DNA of 64,000 nt from Solirubrobacteraceae bacterium (GTDB lineage: Bacteria; Actinomycetota; Thermoleophilia; Solirubrobacterales; Solirubrobacteraceae): assembly GCA_017882455.1 (NCBI GenBank), contig JADGPL010000006.1, positions 1 to 64,000 on the forward strand. The letters are read 5' to 3'. How positions within the stretch are numbered: position 1 is the stretch's first letter; every line of letters starts with the position of its first letter. The notes under the pieces are model-generated. The model made no database searches and was not told the origin of the DNA. It saw nothing but the letters and a program-made list of their open reading frames with translations. Shown here piece by piece: positions 3,490 through 50,980 of the stretch. The position numbers and the translations under genes were made by a program.

Positions 3490-3662
3490 CGTTCTACTAC
3501 CTCCTGGTATGCAGTTCGCCGCCCCGGACAGCAGCGCCCCCCGAGATCGGCCAGAGTGGCAGCGTCTTGCTGCCGACTGGCACTCTCGTGAACTGACCCG
3601 TTGACAAGGTTGTCGAGCGGTGACTGTCCCGCCGTTTGCGGCTCGTGGGCCAGATGCTGATG

Positions 3663-3710
3663 ACACCTGATTACAGCGTGTTTACATAAGTTCACACGCT
3701 GTTCACATTC
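3663..3710 (+). promoter_or_regulatory. five-half-site PHO box array
   Basis: ACA cores occur at 3663, 3673, 3684, 3694 and 3705, i.e. every 10-11 bp, within half-sites TGACAC, TTACA, TTTACA, TTCACA and GTTCACA. This helical phasing on one DNA face is characteristic of PhoB/PhoP-type tandem binding. The array reads on the plus strand, opposite to the nearest downstream gene (start 3489). The rest of the 3490-3866 gap shows no gene. Confidence 0.65.
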
Positions 3711-3820
3711 GGCCGATACCAGCAGAACGGATGACGGGCCGCGCAACGGTGACGACGGCCTGGGCCGGAGCGCCCGCGCCGCCGGGCGGAGCCGCGTGAG
3801 CCCCGCCGCCGGTGTGCTGC

Positions 3821-3842
3821 CGGGGCGCCACGTGGCGCCCCG
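3821..3842 (-). terminator. 22-bp perfect palindrome after the NHL-propeller gene
   Basis: A 22-bp perfect palindrome centred at 3831/3832 sits 25 bp beyond the stop codon at 3867. Its position fits transcription termination of the minus-strand gene. There is no T run and no loop, so a protein-binding site is an alternative. Confidence 0.45.
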
Positions 3843-3866
3843 ACAGCTCCCGAGTAGACCTCTTCG

Positions 3867-6563
3867 CTAGTGGTGCTTGGCGGCGCGCAACGTGACGGTC
3901 GCCGTGGTCGTGTGGGTGGCGCCTGCCGGGTCATGGGCCACGAGCGTGGCTCGTGACGGGATCACGTGCAGCTTCGCCAGGAGCGAGCGCGCCTTCGCCG
4001 ACAGGTGCAGCGTAACGGTCTTGGTCTGTCCGCCCGCGACCGAGAAGGCGCCCGTGGCGAGCGTCAGGATCGACGCCTTCGCCTTGGCCTGATGGCCGAC
4101 GCTGGCCACCACCGCCTTGAGCGTCTTCAGGGTCACCGCGCCAGAGCAGCTGCTCTCGCCGGCCGGGCAGGACACCTTGAGCGTGAACGCTCCCGCGCTG
4201 CTCACCGACGCCGAGGCGCCGGCCAGTGTCGCGATCGGGACGGGCGGTGGTTTGACGACCACGTTGCCGAGGACACCGCCGCCTGGGGCGCCGCCTCCGG
4301 TGCCGCCACCGCCTTCACCGCCGCCACCGCCACCGCCGCCGCCACCGCCACCGCCACCGCCACCGCCGCCACCACCGCCACATCCGCTGGTGCAGACGAC
4401 GGTGCCAGTGGTGGTGAACGTGAGTTCCGTTCCCTGGCTCTTGCCGCTGGCGTTGGCAGCCACGAGCAGGAATTTGTATGTCGTGTGGGCGCTCAGCCCC
4501 GTCAGTGAGGCGGACACGGCGACCGGAGTGGAGCCCGAGCCCAGCCCGGCCGGCGAGCACGGTTCGGTGTGTTCGCTCACGCTGGCGGTGCCGTACTCGA
4601 ACTGGCATTTCGTCAGCGCGGCACCCTGGGGGTTGACGGTGCCGTGCGCGGTCGCCGTCGTTTCGCCCAGGCTCGTCGCCGCTTCCGTCGCGACAGCGGG
4701 TGTCGGGCCGGTCGTGAACGTCCCGTCGAGCCCTTCACCGGCTCCGCCCGCGTTTTTCGCGACCAGCCGGAAGTGGTAGGTCGTGTGCGCCGTCAATCCG
4801 GTCACAGCCGCAGTCACCGCGGTCGCGCTCGAACCGGATCCGCCCGGTTCTTTCTGCGCGCATGGCGCGCTCGCGGTGTAGGAGGTCGTGGTCCCGTATT
4901 CGAACTTGCATTCGCTCACCTTGGCGCCGTTCGGGTTGACCGTGCCGTTGAGCGTCGCCGTCGTGCTCCCGATCGGATTCGCTTCACCGGTTACAGCGGC
5001 CGGGCCGGGGGCCTGGATGTTGATTTTGCCGTGGATCACGAGTTCCGGTTCGGCCAGGACGTCCGTGTGGATCTTCTCGGTGACTTCGAGCGCACCCGCC
5101 TGGGTGAATTTGTGCGTGACTTCGGTCGTCTGGAACTCGTCAGCGCTCACCGTCTGCTTGGTCCCGTCGCCGAATTCCCATTCCACGCTCAGCGCGTTGC
5201 CCTGCGTCAGCTGCGAGGACAGCGCGACCGTGTCGCCGATCGGGATCGGTTCCGCTTCCGGGACACCGATGCCGTTGACGCTGTGCGTCGGTTTGGTCGC
5301 GCTCGGCTTCGCGCAGCCTGTGCCGCCCGGCCCAAACTCGATGACTTTGGGTTTGGTGAATGTCGAGTCGTACACGAAGACGTCGTGGTTCTTGCCGGCG
5401 GCGAGTTGAGACTGGGCGCTGTAGCCGATCTGGCACGGCCCGTTTTCGCCGACGGTCGCGGCGCTCTGGCCGCCCGTCCAGCCTTCCTCCACGCCGGCGG
5501 AGCTGAACTCGAGCACGCCGGGGTAGCGATAGCCGGTCTTTTCGCCGTTGAGTTGCTGCACGATGCCGGCCTTCGTGTAGATCGTCCCTTCAGGACCGAG
5601 GGAGAGACCTCCCCCCGCTTCCGGCAGCGGGTTGCCTGGGAATTCGACGAGAGTTTCGGATGCTGCTTCGAATTCGATGATCGGTTTGGGCGCGGTTTTT
5701 TCAGCGAAGCTCGACGGCACTTCGTCGATTTCGTCGACGTTGTCGACGAGCACCTTGCCCGCGGGCGTCACGACAGGAGACGTGGCTCCTTCGCCTTCGA
5801 AGTAGTTCGTGGTGTCCACCCAGCGGGGCTCTTTGCTCTTGCCGCCCAGTGCCCCCGTTTCGCTGACTCGCTCCATCGCGATCAATGTTTCGCCGAGGGC
5901 GTGCCCGGGGTCTTCCCCGCCGAGGAGGATGATGTCGTGGTTGGTCGGGTCCACGGCGATGCCCGCTGGTTCGAGCAGCGATTCGCCCTGTTTTTCAGAA
6001 AGCGGTTTCAGGATTTTCGGACCGGCCAGCACGCCCGTTTCTTTGCCCGTCGCGGGCGTCCCCGAGGCCGGCAGCAGCTTGCCTTCGCTAGGTTCGGTCG
6101 AGAATGCGTACAGATCCGCCGCGCCGACTTTTTCGGGGTCGATCTTTTCCGACGGGCGCAGCTCGCTGGCGAGCACGTACACGCGTTTGAGGACAGGGTC
6201 GATGACGACATTGTCTACAACGTCGGCTTCTTCGTTTTTTGCTTCGGTGTCCTGCGGCCTGAACTTCACAGAGGCGACGGCCGTGTACTTGCCTTCACCG
6301 TTTACCGTGAACTTCTGCAGACGGAATTCGTCCTTTTCGTCCGGGAGATCGACGACATAGACGCTGTTGTCGGTCGGATCCACACCCATGCCTGCCGCTT
6401 CTTCAAAGGGTTCCAGCTGACCGGTGCCTTTGCCCGCGGATCCGAAACTCGCGATTTCTCCGTAGTTGTCCGCCTGGGCCGCTCCCGCCGTCATGGCGAC
6501 CGCGAAGGCGCTCAACGCCAGCGTGGCTGTCAGGCGGCGGACGAGGCTTACGAGGTCAGACAT
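3867..6563 (-). CDS. secreted NHL-type beta-propeller with PKD and Fn3-like domains
   Basis: This 898-aa protein starts at the ATG at 6563 (GGAG upstream) with a signal peptide ending near AAQA-DNYG. The N-terminal ~430 residues carry NHL/SMP-like repeats with phrases such as GVDPTDNSVYVVD and GIAVDPTNHDIILLGG. A PKD-like module follows (WEFGDGT), then two Fn3-like repeats, each with a TVNPNGA/TVNPQGA plus CxFEYGT signature. Next is a poly-Gly tract of about 25 residues opening with CTSGC, and a C-terminal all-beta domain ending in HH. It is probably an extracellular or wall-exposed protein. A TTCACG pair spaced 11 bp lies about 155 bp upstream, so phosphate control is inferred. Catalytic function is not evident. 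Confidence 0.8.
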   Translation of the reverse strand: MSDLVSLVRRLTATLALSAFAVAMTAGAAQADNYGEIASFGSAGKGTGQLEPFEEAAGMGVDPTDNSVYVVDLPDEKDEFRLQKFTVNGEGKYTAVASVKFRPQDTEAKNEEADVVDNVVIDPVLKRVYVLASELRPSEKIDPEKVGAADLYAFSTEPSEGKLLPASGTPATGKETGVLAGPKILKPLSEKQGESLLEPAGIAVDPTNHDIILLGGEDPGHALGETLIAMERVSETGALGGKSKEPRWVDTTNYFEGEGATSPVVTPAGKVLVDNVDEIDEVPSSFAEKTAPKPIIEFEAASETLVEFPGNPLPEAGGGLSLGPEGTIYTKAGIVQQLNGEKTGYRYPGVLEFSSAGVEEGWTGGQSAATVGENGPCQIGYSAQSQLAAGKNHDVFVYDSTFTKPKVIEFGPGGTGCAKPSATKPTHSVNGIGVPEAEPIPIGDTVALSSQLTQGNALSVEWEFGDGTKQTVSADEFQTTEVTHKFTQAGALEVTEKIHTDVLAEPELVIHGKINIQAPGPAAVTGEANPIGSTTATLNGTVNPNGAKVSECKFEYGTTTSYTASAPCAQKEPGGSGSSATAVTAAVTGLTAHTTYHFRLVAKNAGGAGEGLDGTFTTGPTPAVATEAATSLGETTATAHGTVNPQGAALTKCQFEYGTASVSEHTEPCSPAGLGSGSTPVAVSASLTGLSAHTTYKFLLVAANASGKSQGTELTFTTTGTVVCTSGCGGGGGGGGGGGGGGGGGGGGGEGGGGTGGGAPGGGVLGNVVVKPPPVPIATLAGASASVSSAGAFTLKVSCPAGESSCSGAVTLKTLKAVVASVGHQAKAKASILTLATGAFSVAGGQTKTVTLHLSAKARSLLAKLHVIPSRATLVAHDPAGATHTTTATVTLRAAKHH
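4297..4383 (-). repeat. poly-glycine codon repeat
   Basis: An almost uninterrupted run of GGN codons (GGC/GGT) on the minus strand encodes a glycine linker of more than 20 residues, broken only by Glu and Thr near its C-terminal end. It separates the Fn3-like repeats from the last domain of the NHL protein. Such triplet runs are prone to slippage and assembly error, so the exact length is uncertain. Confidence 0.85.
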
Positions 6564-11237: not shown

Positions 11238-13129
11238 AACCGTGTTTCCGCCCCGAGCGGGCCACCCTGCAGGATCGCGCGTGCGTTGGGGAACGCCAGC
11301 GAGGTGGAGACGCTGTTGGTGTTCGCTTCCTGGGTCGACTTCGTGGGCAGGGGGGCGAGCGCGTGTGTCTGCAGGTCGAGCTTGGTCGGCCAGCGCTTTG
11401 CGTTCAGGCGCAGCAGCAGCTTGCGCCTGCCTGCGGCGAAGGTGTGCGTCGGCGTGCTTGCGACCACCTTGTGCTTGCGCTCGGCGAGCAGGCGCACGCG
11501 CGCCGTGACGGCCAGCTGGAAGCTCAGTTCGAGTTCGGTCTTGTGGATCAGTCGCGAGCGCATGTGCGAGAGCAGCGGTACCGCCACGCGGGCGAACGGG
11601 TTCACCACCTGCGCGACCACAGGTCCTTCCGAGGCCGCCCCTTCCGAGAGGCCCGAGTTGTCCACGGGCACCGCATCGGAGGCCTCCCGCGGCACCCCTT
11701 CGTCGGCGGGGCGTGCCGTGATCAGGTTTTCACCATCGAAGGCGGGGTCGCCGTCGCGCTGGGGGTGAGCGCGTTCTTCAGCGGTGCTGAGATGAAACAG
11801 CCACCCGCGCGTGCTCGCCATCCAGCAGTCGTGGACCGCCGGGCACACGATCTTTTCCGCCGCTCCCTTCGGGCCATCCTGTTCGCCGGCGAGGGGCAGT
11901 TGCAACCTGTCCGAGATCGATCCTTCGGCGGAGATGTGGGCGACGGTCGCCCGCGCGAGCGGATTGGGACCGCGTGATGCTTCTTCCTGGGACTCGAGGG
12001 CGAGCCAGGCGCTGTGCGTGCCCGGCTCGCCGGCAACCGCGTTGACGATCTGATCTTCCGAGAAGGCTTCGAGACCCGAAGGTTCGCTCTGCGGACCGAG
12101 GACCTGCACCCAGCTGGGGGATCCTTCTTCGAGGTATTCGTGGCTTTCCTTGGAGTACTGGACCTTCGAGTAGCGCAGAACGGTCACGCCCGCTTCGGCC
12201 GATTTTTCGGGCGGTTCGATCACCGTGCCGGCCGCCGCCCACATCGCGTCCGCATCGCTCGAGAGATGCAGGAAGTCCAGGGCGTAGGGGAACTCGCCCG
12301 GCCCGTAGAGGGGCAGGCCCGTGACCGGTTCGAATGAGGTTGTGCCTTCGCCGTCGAGGGCGTGCATGGCCGGCACTTCCAGCGAGCGCTTGATGAAGCG
12401 ATCCGAGGCGGACAGGCGCAGGCTCTCGAACAGGCCGCCTTCGAAGGTGCGCAGATCCTCCACCGCGTGACCTTCCGGCAGATACGGTTCGGCCGTGAGC
12501 GTGCGGCCGTTCCAGTGGAGCTGGAAGGAGCCGATCTGGGGTTCCGGCAGCGAATCGCCGGCGAACCAGCAGTCGCTGGCACTCAGGCAGCTGGCCGCAT
12601 GCATCGCCTGGTAGGAGGTCGACTGGAAGGCCAGCGAGGCGTAGGAGTCGACCACTTCGAGATTGCCCGTGCCGGGGTTCAGGGCAAAGCGACACAGCGT
12701 GTTGTCTTCGAGCGGAGGCGCGAAGCCGCGCGATTCGGAGGCCTGGCCGGGTCGCCCGTCTGAGACCGTCCAGAATTCGTTGGGGCCCGCCCACGCGATG
12801 CGCCCGTCGCTCGCCCCGCACACGTTCGCGAGCTCGTGCCAGCCTTCGCCGTCGTAGGCCCACACGCCCGCGGGCACCGTGCTTCCGTTCCCAGCTGTGA
12901 TCAGAACGCCGCGGTTCGGCGACCAGAATTGGATGTCGCCGATCTTGCCGAGCCCCACGGGAGCGTTCGCGCCTTCGACCCCGCTAGGTGGGCTCGGCGG
13001 GCTCGGCTGTTCCAGGCGCCATTCGGCGTTGCCGTCGTCGGCGAGTTCCGCGGCGTTGGCCGCCGCGCCACCGAGCAGCGCCGTGATCAGCAGCGCGAGC
13101 AGGAGGGCATACAGGGCGCGGGCGCTCAT
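11234..13129 (-). CDS. secreted propeller-like protein of the FtsH operon
   Basis: This 631-aa protein has a signal peptide (MSARALYALLLALLITALLGG, cleavage near ANAA). It shows irregular repeats with Trp/Ser/Gly blade motifs and a C-terminal beta-rich domain (about 510-610) with AVTARVRLLAERKHKVVAS, a pattern common in wall-associated actinobacterial proteins. It overlaps the neighbours on both sides by 4 nt, implying translational coupling. I do not recognise a specific family. The N-terminal ~450 residues resemble those of the 1499-aa downstream product in style, suggesting a shared origin; this is not verified by alignment. Confidence 0.7.
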   Translation of the reverse strand: MSARALYALLLALLITALLGGAAANAAELADDGNAEWRLEQPSPPSPPSGVEGANAPVGLGKIGDIQFWSPNRGVLITAGNGSTVPAGVWAYDGEGWHELANVCGASDGRIAWAGPNEFWTVSDGRPGQASESRGFAPPLEDNTLCRFALNPGTGNLEVVDSYASLAFQSTSYQAMHAASCLSASDCWFAGDSLPEPQIGSFQLHWNGRTLTAEPYLPEGHAVEDLRTFEGGLFESLRLSASDRFIKRSLEVPAMHALDGEGTTSFEPVTGLPLYGPGEFPYALDFLHLSSDADAMWAAAGTVIEPPEKSAEAGVTVLRYSKVQYSKESHEYLEEGSPSWVQVLGPQSEPSGLEAFSEDQIVNAVAGEPGTHSAWLALESQEEASRGPNPLARATVAHISAEGSISDRLQLPLAGEQDGPKGAAEKIVCPAVHDCWMASTRGWLFHLSTAEERAHPQRDGDPAFDGENLITARPADEGVPREASDAVPVDNSGLSEGAASEGPVVAQVVNPFARVAVPLLSHMRSRLIHKTELELSFQLAVTARVRLLAERKHKVVASTPTHTFAAGRRKLLLRLNAKRWPTKLDLQTHALAPLPTKSTQEANTNSVSTSLAFPNARAILQGGPLGAETRF

Positions 13130-46747: not shown

Positions 46748-47071
46748 TTACTCGAACAGCCTGCCCTCGACGTCCGGCCAGTACCTGTAGAGAGTCTTGG
46801 CCTGGTCGAGCACGAGCTCGGCAAAGTGGTTGATGTCCTGGACGCTCCCGCCCCCAGGCGGCGCAACTGGCAGCTTGTACTCGTGCTCGCGGAGGAGCCG
46901 CCTGATCTGGCGGCGAATGGCAGCCTCAGTCGATGCCCGGTCGGCCCAGTCGACGGTGAGGTCTTCCCTGATGCTTTTGACGAGGTCTCGCGCGATTTTG
47001 GCGAGTTGCGGGTCGACGTTGGGCACGTCGGTGCCACCGGCGAGCGCGTCGTAGAAGGCGGACCTGGTGCG
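46748..47071 (-). pseudogene. C-terminal remnant of a type I restriction enzyme HsdR
   Basis: The frame SAFYDALAGG ... QLAKIARDLVKSIREDLTVDW ... RQIRRLLREHEY ... AELVLDQAKTLYRYW matches the conserved C-terminal (DUF3387) region of HsdR, which in complete proteins follows more than 700 residues of nuclease and helicase domains. It ends in a natural stop but has no 5' part, being joined to unrelated sequence at about 47065. Confidence 0.7.
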
Positions 47072-47144
47072 GTTTGAGCTTGTGATCACGCCAGATCCGG
47101 TGCACCGTCGTAGGAGAAACACCGGTCGCGGTGGCCAGCCACCT
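47064..47144 (-). mobile_element. IS630-like transposase fragment
   Basis: In a second minus frame, WLATATGVSPTTVHRIWRDH followed by KLKPHQ matches the helix-turn-helix end of IS630-family transposases. Only ~27 residues remain; no DDE region or terminal repeats were found. Confidence 0.6.
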
Positions 47145-47269
47145 GCTCGCGCCACGCGGACGCCCTCCGCGCGCTCGCACAGATCCTCCAGCAGCGCCGT
47201 CTTGCCCACGCCCGGCTCGCCGCGCATCACGAGCATGCCGCCGCGCAGGAGTAGTTTTCCACAGAGCAC
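47145..47269 (-). pseudogene. N-terminal fragment of a LuxR/STAND-type ATPase
   Basis: The frame GGMLVMRGEPGVGKTALLEDL followed by CERAEGVRVARAGG carries a Walker A (GEPGVGKT) in the setting of LuxR-family or cyclase-linked ATPases. It stops being recognisable at the IS630-like fragment. It is a truncated remnant. Confidence 0.6.
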
Positions 47270-47321: not shown

Positions 47322-47786
47322 ATGTTCTCCAGCGGCTCCGCGGCACGCGCCCATCTCAAACCCCAGCCTTGGCGCTGGAGCCACCCGCGGGTCCTCGTGG
47401 AGCACCCGGACGAGGCGACCGGCCTCGCGATCGCCTCCGGCTTGCGCTTCGCCGGCTACGCGGTCGCCATCTGTCCCGGCCCAGCCGGACACGGGCGCTG
47501 TCCACTGGCCGGACCCGCAGGATGCGCCCCAGCTCACGACGCCGATCTCGTTGTCAGCTCCCTGGGCTACGAGCGCGAGACGGCCCGGGAGGTGTTGCGC
47601 GCACTGCGCACGCACTATCCCGACACGCCTCTACTGGTCGAGGCGCCGTCGGACATGGACACGGGCATGCGCGAGCTCTTGGACGGTGCTCACCAGTTGC
47701 CGGCACCGGCGAGCACCGAGCAGATCGTAGCCGCCGTGCGGAGCCTGTCCGGCCACACCGCCGACGAGGGCCCCGCCGATGCGTAG
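47322..47786 (+). CDS. receiver-like (Rossmann) domain protein lacking phospho-Asp
   Basis: This 154-aa protein has a CheY-like alternation: PRVLVEHPDEATGLAIASGLRFAGYAVAI, DADLVVSSLGYE, YPDTPLLVEAPS and a final STEQIVAAVRSL. The usual acceptor Asp position reads VVSSLG and the Lys is absent, so it is a pseudo-receiver at best. It overlaps the next gene by 8 nt, suggesting co-expression. Confidence 0.55.
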   Translation: MFSSGSAARAHLKPQPWRWSHPRVLVEHPDEATGLAIASGLRFAGYAVAICPGPAGHGRCPLAGPAGCAPAHDADLVVSSLGYERETAREVLRALRTHYPDTPLLVEAPSDMDTGMRELLDGAHQLPAPASTEQIVAAVRSLSGHTADEGPADA

Positions 47787-48957
47787 CCCATTTCACAGCG
47801 AGCAGGAGGCCTTTCGGTCTGTCCTGCTGGCGACACTCGCTCTGATCGCAGTCGTGCTCGCCGCCGCGCTCGGCCCGACGTGGCTCGCTCCCGTTGTGCT
47901 TGCGGTCGTACTCGGCGCCGTAGCTGTGCGCGTAGCGCAAGTGCGCATGCGCAAGCTCCGCGGCCTTGAGCTGCCGGTCAAGATGGCCCCCGCGCACCTT
48001 GGCTCAGCGTCGGAGCGCCGCGTCCTCGTCGTCGCCAACGACACACTCAGCGAGGAGGCGCTCCTCAGCGAGCTCGAGCGGCTGGCCTCCGTACCGCATA
48101 CGCACGTGCTCCTGCTCGTGCCCGCGCTGATCTCCCCTGGAGCCCGCTTGACCGGCGCTGTCGACGGCCTCTTGGATCAGGCGCGCCTCCGCCTGAAGAC
48201 GGCCCTCGACCGCGTCGGCCACGACCTCGTCGTCGGGGGTGGGATCTCGGATGCAGATCCACTCGAAGCCGTCGAGGACGCGTTCGCCACCTTCGTGCCG
48301 GATGAAGTCATCGTCTCCACTGGCTGGGAGCGAGCCGCGAACGGACTCGAGCCGCAGCTCGCGGGTCTCGTGCGTGAGCGGTTCGCCGTGCCCGTTCGTC
48401 ATCTCGTCTTCGAGCCCGGGTCCGTCACGCAAGAACCAGACAAGGACACCGAGGCCAGATATCGGCACGAATTCGGTGAGGCAGCCGCCAGGAAGTTCGG
48501 GCTGAAGGCGCTCGCGGGCGCGGGGATCCTGGCCGCGGTGCTGTTGTCCGTGGTCGCAGTCGTCCAGAGCAGCGAACGAGACGAAGCACGCGCGGCATCC
48601 CAGGCCACCGCCGCGCAGACCGCGGGACTACCCCCGATCGCAAAGGTGGTCGATCTGTCGGTCATCCCGGAATACAAGCGCGGTCCGGAAGGCGAAAAGC
48701 ACGATGCCTTCACCACGACCGACTTCACCGTCCGGGCGGGCCAGCCCCAGCAGTTGAGGATCGACAACACCGATACGGTGCCTCACAGCATCACCGCGCC
48801 GGAAGCCGGCATCAAAATCGTCGTCATACCCGGCACCCACACCTACACGTTGCTCGTAAAGCAGCCTGGAAGGTTTCTCTGGTTCTGCAGCTTCGTATGC
48901 GACGAATGGGCGATGCAGCACCCGGGCTACATGAGCGGCTACATCAGCGCCATCTAG
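47779..48957 (+). CDS. membrane protein fusing a USP-like domain to a cupredoxin domain
   Basis: The protein is 392 aa. TM helices lie at ~14-60 (two segments). A Rossmann/USP-like region follows (~78-230; RRVLVVANDTLSEEALLSEL, VGGGISDADPLEAVEDAF, DEVIVSTGWER). A further TM (ALAGAGILAAVLLSVVAVVQ, ~246-265) leads to a C-terminal single-domain cupredoxin with ligand candidates His in VPHSITAPEAG and CSFVCDEWAMQHPGYM (Cys, Cys, His, Met). The Cys pair resembles the CuA layout of cytochrome oxidase subunit II but with a longer Cys-His gap. The cupredoxin faces outside; the USP-like part lies inside. Electron transfer or copper sensing is inferred. Confidence 0.75.
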   Translation: MRSPFHSEQEAFRSVLLATLALIAVVLAAALGPTWLAPVVLAVVLGAVAVRVAQVRMRKLRGLELPVKMAPAHLGSASERRVLVVANDTLSEEALLSELERLASVPHTHVLLLVPALISPGARLTGAVDGLLDQARLRLKTALDRVGHDLVVGGGISDADPLEAVEDAFATFVPDEVIVSTGWERAANGLEPQLAGLVRERFAVPVRHLVFEPGSVTQEPDKDTEARYRHEFGEAAARKFGLKALAGAGILAAVLLSVVAVVQSSERDEARAASQATAAQTAGLPPIAKVVDLSVIPEYKRGPEGEKHDAFTTTDFTVRAGQPQQLRIDNTDTVPHSITAPEAGIKIVVIPGTHTYTLLVKQPGRFLWFCSFVCDEWAMQHPGYMSGYISAI

Positions 48958-48978: not shown

Positions 48979-49428
48979 CTACGCCCGGGCGGGAATGGCA
49001 TCGAGCGCAGCTTTGAGATCGTCCACCGACTGGTAGTCCAGCCCCAGACGGTGGTCGTGGCGGTGGCGCACCACGCCCTGCTCGTCGATGATGACGACGG
49101 CACGCTTGCCGCTTGCGCTGTACGCCTTGCCGACGGTCTTATCGACGTCAGCCAGCAGCGGGACCGTGAGGCTGTTCTTGAGGATGAAGCCCTCGTGGGA
49201 GGCCAGATCCTGCGCCGAGATCCCGACGACCGTCGCATCGAGCGCCGCGAAGTCGTCCGCCCGATCCCGGTACGAGCAGAACTGCTTTTTACACACCGGC
49301 GTGTTGTCGCCCGGGTAGAACAGCAGCACGACCCGCTCCCCGCGATGCTCTGAGAGCCGGAACGGACCGTCCGTGCCCGGCAGCTCGAAGTCCGGCGCCT
49401 GCTCGCCCACCTGTGGTGTCTTGGCCAT
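48979..49428 (-). CDS. bcp: thiol peroxidase of the BCP/PrxQ type
   Basis: This 149-aa protein has the AhpC/TSA fold motifs APDFELPG, VVLLFYPGDNTPVCKKQFC with peroxidatic Cys46 and resolving Cys51 (the atypical 2-Cys BCP spacing), and AVVIIDEQGVVRHRH. It reduces peroxides at thioredoxin's expense in the cytosol. ATG 49428 lies close to the divergent lipoprotein gene. Confidence 0.92.
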   Translation of the reverse strand: MAKTPQVGEQAPDFELPGTDGPFRLSEHRGERVVLLFYPGDNTPVCKKQFCSYRDRADDFAALDATVVGISAQDLASHEGFILKNSLTVPLLADVDKTVGKAYSASGKRAVVIIDEQGVVRHRHDHRLGLDYQSVDDLKAALDAIPARA

Positions 49429-49459
49429 GCTCGGACTCTATGCGCTAGAACGAGGACGC

Positions 49460-50980
49460 GTGCGCCCGTCCCGCCTCCGCTCCGCGCTTGCCCCCGCTCC
49501 CTGCCTGCTGCTCGTCGCGTGCCTCGTGCTCGCCGCATGTGGAGCGAGCGCACCCGCCGCCGCGTCCACGCCGAGCGCAAGCCGTGCGGCGATCCCTGCG
49601 GCCGGCGCCTCCGCCTCGCGGCTCCTGGACTGGCCCGAGTTCGGCCTGAATCCCCAGCGCGCCGACGTCAGCGAAGACGCCACCGGCATCACCGCGGCCA
49701 ACGTGGCGCACATGCGCCGCGTCACGGTCGCGCTCCCGGGAACGGTGGACTCCTCGCCCGTCTACCTGCACGGCGTCGCGGTGGACGGCTCGAGCCACAA
49801 CACGATCGTGGCAACGACCACCTACGGCAGGACGCTCGCGATCGACGCGAACACCGGCCGGATCCTGTGGACGTTCACCCCGCCCGGCATCTCCGGCTGG
49901 GCGGGCAGCGCCCAGATCACCACCGCCAGCCCCGTCGCGGACCCGGACCGGATGTTCGTCTACGCGGCCTCCCCCAACGGCCTCATCCACAAGCTCTCGC
50001 TCTCCGACGGAGGCGAGGATCGCAGCGGCGGCTGGCCCGTGCGGATCACGCGCGACCCAACCCACGAGAAGATCGCAGCCGCGCTCAACATCGACGGGAG
50101 CTCGGTGCTCGCCGCGACCGGCGGCTACTACGGCGATGCCCCGCCCTACCAGGGCCATCTGGTGGCGATCGACCGCTCGAGCGCTCGCCTGACGCGGGTC
50201 TTCAACACGCTCTGCTCGGGCCGACGCGAACTGCTCGTGCCGAGCAGCTGCCCGGCGAGCGACTCGGCGATCCTCTCCCGCGGCGGTGCCGTGGTCGAGC
50301 CGGGAGGCAAGCGCATCCTGATCGACACCGGCAACGCCCCGTGGAACGGCAGCAGCGACTTCGGCGACAGCGTGCTCGAGCTCACCTTCCCGTCGCTGAG
50401 CCTGCGCCAGTCCTTCACGCCCACCAACCAGGCCGAGCTCAACAGCAGCGACACCGACCTCGGCTCGAGCGCCCCCGTGCTGCTCGGCCACGATCGTGTG
50501 GCCGTGGCCGGCAAGGATGGGATCCTGCGCGTGCTCGCGCTCTCGCGCCTGGACGGCCGCCCGCCGTCAGCCCGCCACTCGCTCGGCGGCGAACTCCAGC
50601 GCCTTTCGATACCGGGCGGCGGCGAGCTGTTCACGGCGCCCGCGGTCTGGAGCCACGGCACCTACACCACCATGTTCGTCGCCGACGAAGGCGGGACCGC
50701 CGCCTACGCGCTGCGCGCCGGGCGCCTGTATCGGGTGTGGGAAGACGGGACGCCGGGCACGAGCCCGGTGATGGCCGGAGGCCTGCTCTACGTCTATGAC
50801 CCCGCGGCGGGCGGCATCGATGTCTATCGCCCGTCCTCGCCGCGGGCGATCGCCAAGCTCGCCGGCCAGCCGGGCCACTGGAACAGTCCGATCGTCATCG
50901 ACGGGCATGTGGTCGAGCCCGAGGGCAACGCCAACGACCACAAGCTCACGGGGACGCTGGAGATCTTCTCAGCGGCTTGA
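49460..50980 (+). CDS. lipoprotein with PQQ-type beta-propeller
   Basis: This 506-aa protein from GTG 49460 has a lipoprotein signal with lipobox LAAC (LLLVACLVLAACGAS). An 8-blade PQQ-like propeller follows: DWPEFGLNPQRAD, SSPVYLHGV, GRTLAIDANTGRILWTFTPPG, VLLGHDRVAVAGKDGILRVLAL and TAAYALRAGRLYRVWEDGTPG. The true PQQ-enzyme catalytic residues cannot be assigned, so a scaffolding or sensing role is as likely. ATG 49427 is possible but would overlap the divergent peroxiredoxin start. Its 3' end overlaps the sulfotransferase gene by 35 nt. Confidence 0.8.
   Translation: MRPSRLRSALAPAPCLLLVACLVLAACGASAPAAASTPSASRAAIPAAGASASRLLDWPEFGLNPQRADVSEDATGITAANVAHMRRVTVALPGTVDSSPVYLHGVAVDGSSHNTIVATTTYGRTLAIDANTGRILWTFTPPGISGWAGSAQITTASPVADPDRMFVYAASPNGLIHKLSLSDGGEDRSGGWPVRITRDPTHEKIAAALNIDGSSVLAATGGYYGDAPPYQGHLVAIDRSSARLTRVFNTLCSGRRELLVPSSCPASDSAILSRGGAVVEPGGKRILIDTGNAPWNGSSDFGDSVLELTFPSLSLRQSFTPTNQAELNSSDTDLGSSAPVLLGHDRVAVAGKDGILRVLALSRLDGRPPSARHSLGGELQRLSIPGGGELFTAPAVWSHGTYTTMFVADEGGTAAYALRAGRLYRVWEDGTPGTSPVMAGGLLYVYDPAAGGIDVYRPSSPRAIAKLAGQPGHWNSPIVIDGHVVEPEGNANDHKLTGTLEIFSAA

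What the first reader, a model, noticed from the sequence alone, without database searches (positions are those of the whole stretch)
47779..48957. Membrane fusion of a USP-like cytosolic domain with an external cupredoxin
The C-terminal Cys-x3-Cys-x6-His-x3-Met motif differs from CuA (shorter Cys-His gap) and from blue copper proteins. Joining it across the membrane to a nucleotide-binding-like domain suggests copper- or redox-controlled signalling. A pseudo-receiver gene overlaps it upstream and a peroxiredoxin lies downstream.
Basis: partly seen in the sequence, partly recalled or inferred. Interest (0 to 1): 0.6.

Follow-up and report, generated by a model that had tools for sequence, protein, structure and literature searches.

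The report
Membrane copper-protein fused to stress-protein-like domain
In one genus of soil bacteria a small family of membrane proteins really does join a cytosolic domain related to universal stress proteins to an external copper-protein domain with an unusual, CuA-like two-cysteine loop; what it does is untested, but it is probably a copper or redox sensor, or an electron carrier, tied to a regulator.

Summary
The gene at 47779-48957 is real: a transmembrane hairpin, a USP-like domain, a third transmembrane helix and a C-terminal cupredoxin. It is a genuine fusion of two genes that otherwise stand alone, found full length in 4 of 24 genomes of one Solirubrobacteraceae genus, under purifying selection, and nowhere else searched. 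An unfused receiver + USP operon survives in the same genus. Homologues support opposite sides of the membrane. The motif is H336-x33-C370-x3-C374-x6-H381-x3-M385; H336, both Cys, M379 and M385 are invariant, H381 is not (35 of 45). 'Nucleotide-binding-like' is not supported: none of 28 relatives has the USP ATP motif, and the fusion clade lost its family's S-x-W-L signature. The upstream pseudo-receiver is confirmed (no phospho-Asp) and accompanies every fusion; the peroxiredoxin is not conserved. Copper- or redox-controlled signalling is the most likely role but is inference; electron carrier and copper chaperone remain open. New variant of a known kind.

The parts
47322..47786 (+). Pseudo-receiver (response-regulator-like) protein, 154 aa; phosphoacceptor Asp replaced by Ser/Cys; invariant C-x8-C-x7-C-x3-H insertion; overlaps the fusion gene by 8 bases
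   Evidence: Homologous to OmpR-type receivers; upstream of the gene in L098, L099, L101, L045 and of the unfused USP gene in L131
47779..48957 (+). Fusion gene, 392 aa
   Evidence: full-length orthologues in G380, G386, G387; dN/dS
47779..47970 (+). Residues 1-64: conserved N-terminus plus transmembrane hairpin (helices 8-31, 36-63)
   Evidence: same hairpin in stand-alone relatives L035-L039
48004..48420 (+). Residues 76-214: USP-like alpha/beta domain, predicted cytosolic
   Evidence: Profile hit to 2IEL (TT0030), E 1.8e-24; Pfam Usp in 7 of 28 relatives; five-strand alpha/beta in the model
48421..48441 (+). Fusion junction, residues about 215-221
   Evidence: Stand-alone USP genes stop here (L046, L131); stand-alone cupredoxin genes start here (MHVEVPDKETE in L034)
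48499..48573 (+). Residues 241-265: third transmembrane helix
   Evidence: Hydropathy, helix 222-265 in the model
48634..48954 (+). Residues 286-392: extracytoplasmic cupredoxin domain, CuA-like two-Cys type with a long ligand loop
   Evidence: PF13473 29.5 bits (cut-off 27) for the isolated domain; AF2 pLDDT 95; fold matches to nitrosocyanin, Cupredoxin_1 and CuA domains
48784..48786 (+). H336, predicted copper ligand (invariant)
   Evidence: 33 of 33 relatives; aligned to the first CuA His
48886..48933 (+). Ligand loop C370-SFV-C374-DEWA-M379-Q-H381-PGY-M385
   Evidence: C370, C374, M379, M385 invariant; H381 35 of 45

Best explanation
A genus-specific membrane protein made by fusing the 3' end of a hairpin/USP-like gene (already in an operon with a pseudo-receiver) to a copy of a stand-alone membrane-anchored cupredoxin gene. 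The cupredoxin lies outside the membrane and is predicted to bind copper with H336, C370, C374 and one or both of M379/M385, a CuA-like two-thiolate set on a longer loop. The most likely mechanism is that copper loading or the redox state of this external site changes the conformation or assembly of the protein and is passed through the third helix to the cytosolic USP-like domain, which acts as a protein-protein docking module (not an ATP switch) for the receiver-like partner. Shown: the ORF and its homologies, fusion history, ligand conservation, partner conservation. Inferred from homology: topology and copper binding. Inferred only: signalling, its direction and the partner contact.
For: Full-length fusions in four genomes; purifying selection on both halves. 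The receiver-like gene accompanies all four fusions and the truncated copy in L045, and also the unfused USP gene in L131. Cupredoxin fold and profile match of H336, C370 and C374 to CuA of CoxB (E 3e-7) and of the domain to NosZ (E 9e-9). Invariant H336/C370/C374/M379/M385 in 33 relatives. The receiver lacks its phospho-Asp and no member of the USP set has the ATP motif, which favours contact rather than catalysis. Sec-type or lipoprotein-like N-termini on cupredoxin relatives (read by eye); soluble USP relatives without transmembrane segments; Lys/Arg-rich segment after helix 2.
Against: No histidine kinase, sigma factor or regulated gene is conserved beside it. The USP half has moved away from its family signature, and the cupredoxin is missing or truncated in G381 and G400 relatives, so the path is dispensable. 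The stand-alone paralogues could be ordinary electron carriers. Copper binding and topology have no experimental support. No model coordinates were available to measure the metal site.
Confidence: 0.4

Rival explanations
1. Electron carrier: the cupredoxin shuttles electrons at the outer face of the membrane, for example between a bc complex or a dehydrogenase and a terminal oxidase, and the USP-like half only anchors it or lets the cell tune respiration.
For: Closest solved relatives by profile are CuA domains and other electron-transfer cupredoxins. Versions of the domain occur in most genomes of the genus, mostly as stand-alone genes with an N-terminal membrane segment. USP-like proteins of the same family sit in cytochrome c oxidase operons of this class: between CoxA and CoxC in the own genome, and beside CoxB/CoxA in L036 and L037.
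Against: No oxidase, bc complex or dehydrogenase gene is conserved next to the fusion; electron transfer does not explain why the receiver-USP operon was the fusion partner.
Confidence: 0.27
2. Copper chaperone or copper buffer outside the membrane: a Cys2/Met2/His site holds Cu(I) and hands it to CoxB, working like Sco or PCuAC.
For: Two invariant Met and two invariant Cys would suit Cu(I) (general knowledge); variable loop length and replaceable H381 fit a storage or transfer site at least as well as a tuned electron-transfer site.
Against: The fold is a cupredoxin with the CuA-type arrangement, not a thioredoxin-like Sco; no CoxB or copper transporter was seen conserved next to the fusion.
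Confidence: 0.2
3. A neutral or decaying fusion: gene fusion without a shared function, the two halves working (or failing) separately.
For: Restricted to part of one genus; the cupredoxin half is missing in G381 and truncated in G400; the USP half has lost its family signature.
Against: Four full-length copies with dN/dS 0.16-0.63 across both halves and the junction; ligands intact in all four; the receiver-like gene is retained in all.
Confidence: 0.13

Closest known systems
CuA domains (cytochrome c oxidase subunit II / nitrous-oxide reductase)
   Same: Cupredoxin fold, first His 33 residues before the first Cys (canonical 34), C-x3-C at the same place
   Different: Cys-to-His gap x6 or x10 instead of x3, His-to-Met x3 instead of x2, second His replaceable, extra invariant Met, no CoxA partner next door
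Pfam Cupredoxin_1 (PF13473), including Bacillus 4HCF/4HCI
   Same: All 33 relatives match; structure Z about 12
   Different: Two-Cys loop and fusion to a cytosolic domain; the ligand set of 4HCF was not compared here
Nitrosocyanin (red copper, 1IBZ)
   Same: Top structural match, Z 12.9, rmsd 2.7 over 96 residues
   Different: 12% identity; from general knowledge its ligands are Glu, Cys and two His, without a second Cys or Met
AcoP of Acidithiobacillus ferrooxidans (green cupredoxin)
   Same: Respiratory cupredoxin with an unusually long ligand loop, C-x6-H-x4-M (PMC4059628)
   Different: A single Cys in its stated copper motif; no direct sequence comparison made here; no USP or receiver partner known to me
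2IEL (TT0030) / universal stress proteins
   Same: USP-like domain profile matches 2IEL at E 1.8e-24
   Different: S-x-W-L signature lost in the fusion clade; membrane hairpin added; no ATP motif
PmoD
   Same: Non-canonical CuA-forming cupredoxin using an M-x-H pair (PMC6189053)
   Different: Its ligands come from a different part of the fold and from a homodimer

Membership tests
CuA cupredoxin | Cupredoxin fold | tested here: met
   AF2 pLDDT 95; CuA and NosZ chains at Z about 10
CuA cupredoxin | First His about 34 residues before C-x3-C | tested here: met
   H336-x33-C370-x3-C374, all three invariant; aligned to CoxB
CuA cupredoxin | Second His at C-x3-H and Met at H-x2-M | tested here: not met
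   x6 or x10 to H381, x3 to M385; H381 in only 35 of 45
CuA cupredoxin | Binuclear mixed-valence copper | not testable with these tools
   Needs copper loading, UV-vis and EPR
Type 1 (blue) copper protein | One Cys followed by His after 2-4 residues, then Met | tested here: not met
   A second Cys stands four residues after the first in all 33
Pfam Cupredoxin_1 | Score above the curated cut-off | tested here: met
   Isolated domain 29.5 bits against 27; whole protein 26.5, just below
Universal stress protein (ATP-binding) | G-2x-G-9x-G(S/T) motif | tested here: not met
   0 of 28 relatives
Universal stress protein superfamily (homology) | Homology to a solved USP-like protein | tested here: met
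   2IEL E 1.8e-24; Universal stress protein F only E 0.08
2IEL-like subfamily | S-x-W-L after the fourth strand (W in all 22 non-fusion rows) | tested here: not met
   A187/G189 here; Trp replaced in all six fusion-clade rows
Receiver domain (upstream gene) | Phosphoacceptor Asp | tested here: not met
   Ser or Cys at that column in all six full-length homologues

The most novel reading that the evidence does not exclude
A natural loop-extended CuA-type dithiolate copper site, outside any oxidase, used as an external redox or copper sensor whose state is read in the cytosol by a non-catalytic USP-like/pseudo-receiver pair.
Probability: 0.15. Interest if true: 0.75.

Novelty: new variant of a known kind. 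Interest (0 to 1): 0.45.

Why it matters
If it signals, it would be a way to carry copper or redox information across a membrane without a kinase, and it would show how an electron-carrier domain is recruited as a sensor. Independently, the two-Cys long-loop cupredoxin family (Actinomycetota, Bacillota and others) is a natural test of how far the CuA ligand loop can be lengthened and still bind copper.

Tried and rejected
Fusion as assembly artefact: rejected by orthologues in other genomes. Peroxiredoxin as conserved partner: no homologue beside the relatives whose flanks are held. PQQ-like propeller 49373-50980 as partner: near a cupredoxin gene only here and in G348, on other contigs or far away in the other genomes compared. 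Other apparent fusions (L052/L074, L053/L105): judged in-frame extensions of stand-alone genes in GC-rich DNA. Single versus repeated origin: G387's cupredoxin groups with stand-alone genes and G381's unfused copy sits among the fusions, but one clade of fused cupredoxins is not rejected (AU p 0.21) and the junction RYRHEF is shared by all full-length fusions, so one origin is favoured, not proven. USP fold hits in Foldseek did not show because the cupredoxin fills the list. Literature: no paper on a USP-cupredoxin fusion found among open papers. No homologue on plasmids.

Full report
What is there. The ORF 47779-48957 (392 aa) is an uninterrupted gene. Pfam sees only Cupredoxin_1 and a weak COX2 match at its C-terminus (26.5 bits for the whole protein, 29.5 for the isolated domain). 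The AlphaFold2 model of the whole protein has two N-terminal helices (8-31, 36-63), a five-stranded alpha/beta domain (80-211), one long helix (222-265), a low-confidence linker (about 264-282) and a beta-sandwich (290-391). The cupredoxin alone is predicted at pLDDT 95 and matches nitrosocyanin (Z 12.9), Bacillus Cupredoxin_1 (Z 12.5) and CuA/NosZ domains (Z about 10).

It is a fusion of two stand-alone genes. Residues 1-215 are homologous to a ~217-aa protein (same N-terminal motif, hairpin, USP-like domain) found across the class, including a paralogue in the own genome. Residues 218-391 are homologous to a stand-alone membrane-anchored cupredoxin, also with a paralogue in the own genome, whose probable start MHVEVPDKETE falls at the junction. 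Full-length fusions occur in G380, G386 and G387 of the same genus (82, 80, 69% identity). The three were also recovered as named Solirubrobacterales/Solirubrobacteraceae MAGs (L098, L099, L101). No fusion was seen among the other genomes searched in the phylum, class and family or in the GTDB contig scan (records of the own genome may be left out there). In G400 one copy is the unfused receiver + USP operon (L131), another copy ends after the third helix (L045), and in G381 the copy stops at the junction (L046). dN/dS is 0.16-0.63 in hairpin, USP, junction/helix and cupredoxin.

History. In trees the N-half of G381 (unfused) lies among the fusions and the cupredoxin of G387 lies with stand-alone copies, but a single clade of fused cupredoxins is not rejected (p-AU 0.21), and the derived junction sequence RYRHEF is common to all full-length fusions and absent from stand-alone cupredoxins. 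One fusion followed by losses is the simplest reading; two fusions are not excluded.

The ligand loop. In the window's numbering, H336, C370, C374, M379 and M385 are invariant in 33 relatives, as are D309, N330, D332, P351, G364, W368, G383 and G387. Across 45 loops H381 is His in 35 and Gln, Thr or Asn in 10, and the stretch between the second Cys and the [AS]M pair varies in length. Profile comparison aligns the segment through H336, C370 and C374 with CuA of CoxB from the same class (E 3e-7), and the domain profile finds NosZ at 9e-9. Canonical CuA is H-x34-C-x3-C-x3-H-x2-M (PMC6189053); here it is H-x33-C-x3-C-x6-H-x3-M. So the first half of the motif is CuA-like, the second half is longer and partly replaceable. 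A green respiratory cupredoxin, AcoP, also has a long loop, C-x6-H-x4-M (PMC4059628). Which metal state forms (binuclear CuA, mononuclear, Cu(I) transfer) cannot be told from sequence.

The cytosolic half. The USP-like profile finds 2IEL (TT0030) at 1.8e-24 and Universal stress protein F only at 0.08; Pfam Usp matches 7 of 28 relatives. None of the 28 carries the USP ATP motif. The family's S-x-W-L signature (Trp in 22 of 22 non-fusion rows) is lost throughout the fusion clade, including the unfused and truncated copies in the alignment. A nucleotide-switch reading is therefore not supported.

Topology.

Partners. The gene upstream (47322-47786) is homologous to OmpR-type receivers but has Ser/Cys in place of the phospho-Asp. 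It accompanies all four fusions, the truncated copy in L045 and the unfused USP gene of L131, at 63-79% identity, and carries an invariant C-x8-C-x7-C-x3-H. The peroxiredoxin and the PQQ-like propeller downstream are not conserved neighbours.

Reading. Because the fusion partner is a receiver-USP operon rather than a respiratory operon, signalling is preferred (0.4), followed by electron transfer (0.27), copper delivery (0.2) and no joint function (0.13). USP-like genes of the same family sit in the cytochrome c oxidase operons of these bacteria, so a link to respiration is a serious alternative. The finding is a new architecture built from known parts, with a little-studied variant of the CuA ligand loop.

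Noticed in passing
47322-47786 and homologues L098, L099, L101, L131, L045: The pseudo-receiver has an insertion with an invariant C-x8-C-x7-C-x3-H, a possible zinc or thiol redox site near the lost phospho-Asp.
   Followed up: partly
L165:3423-13353 (own genome C40): Cytochrome c oxidase locus with two CoxB-CoxA sets; a tandem two-domain USP-like gene (11879-12724) starts 17 bases after the second CoxA and before CoxC. Similar USP genes lie beside CoxB/CoxA in L036 and L037.
   Followed up: partly
L165:13795-14601 (-): Fusion of a cytochrome c domain and a plastocyanin-like domain, convergent with the cox operon.
   Followed up: partly
46748-47269 (-): Short ORF whose start looks like an AAA ATPase and whose end matches the C-terminus of a type I restriction subunit: probably a rearrangement remnant just upstream of the operon.
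   Followed up: partly
L041:3621-5579 (-), L040:6271-6930 (-): Related exported proteins with a C-x3-C-G-S-G...M loop, near LuxR-type two-component systems and (L041) a 4Fe-4S/NrfD-like operon; the L041 protein tested (3621-4388) has no Pfam or NCBIfam family above cut-off.
   Followed up: no
L034:8635-9138 (+): A classical-looking USP gene lies divergently beside the own-genome stand-alone cupredoxin.
   Followed up: no
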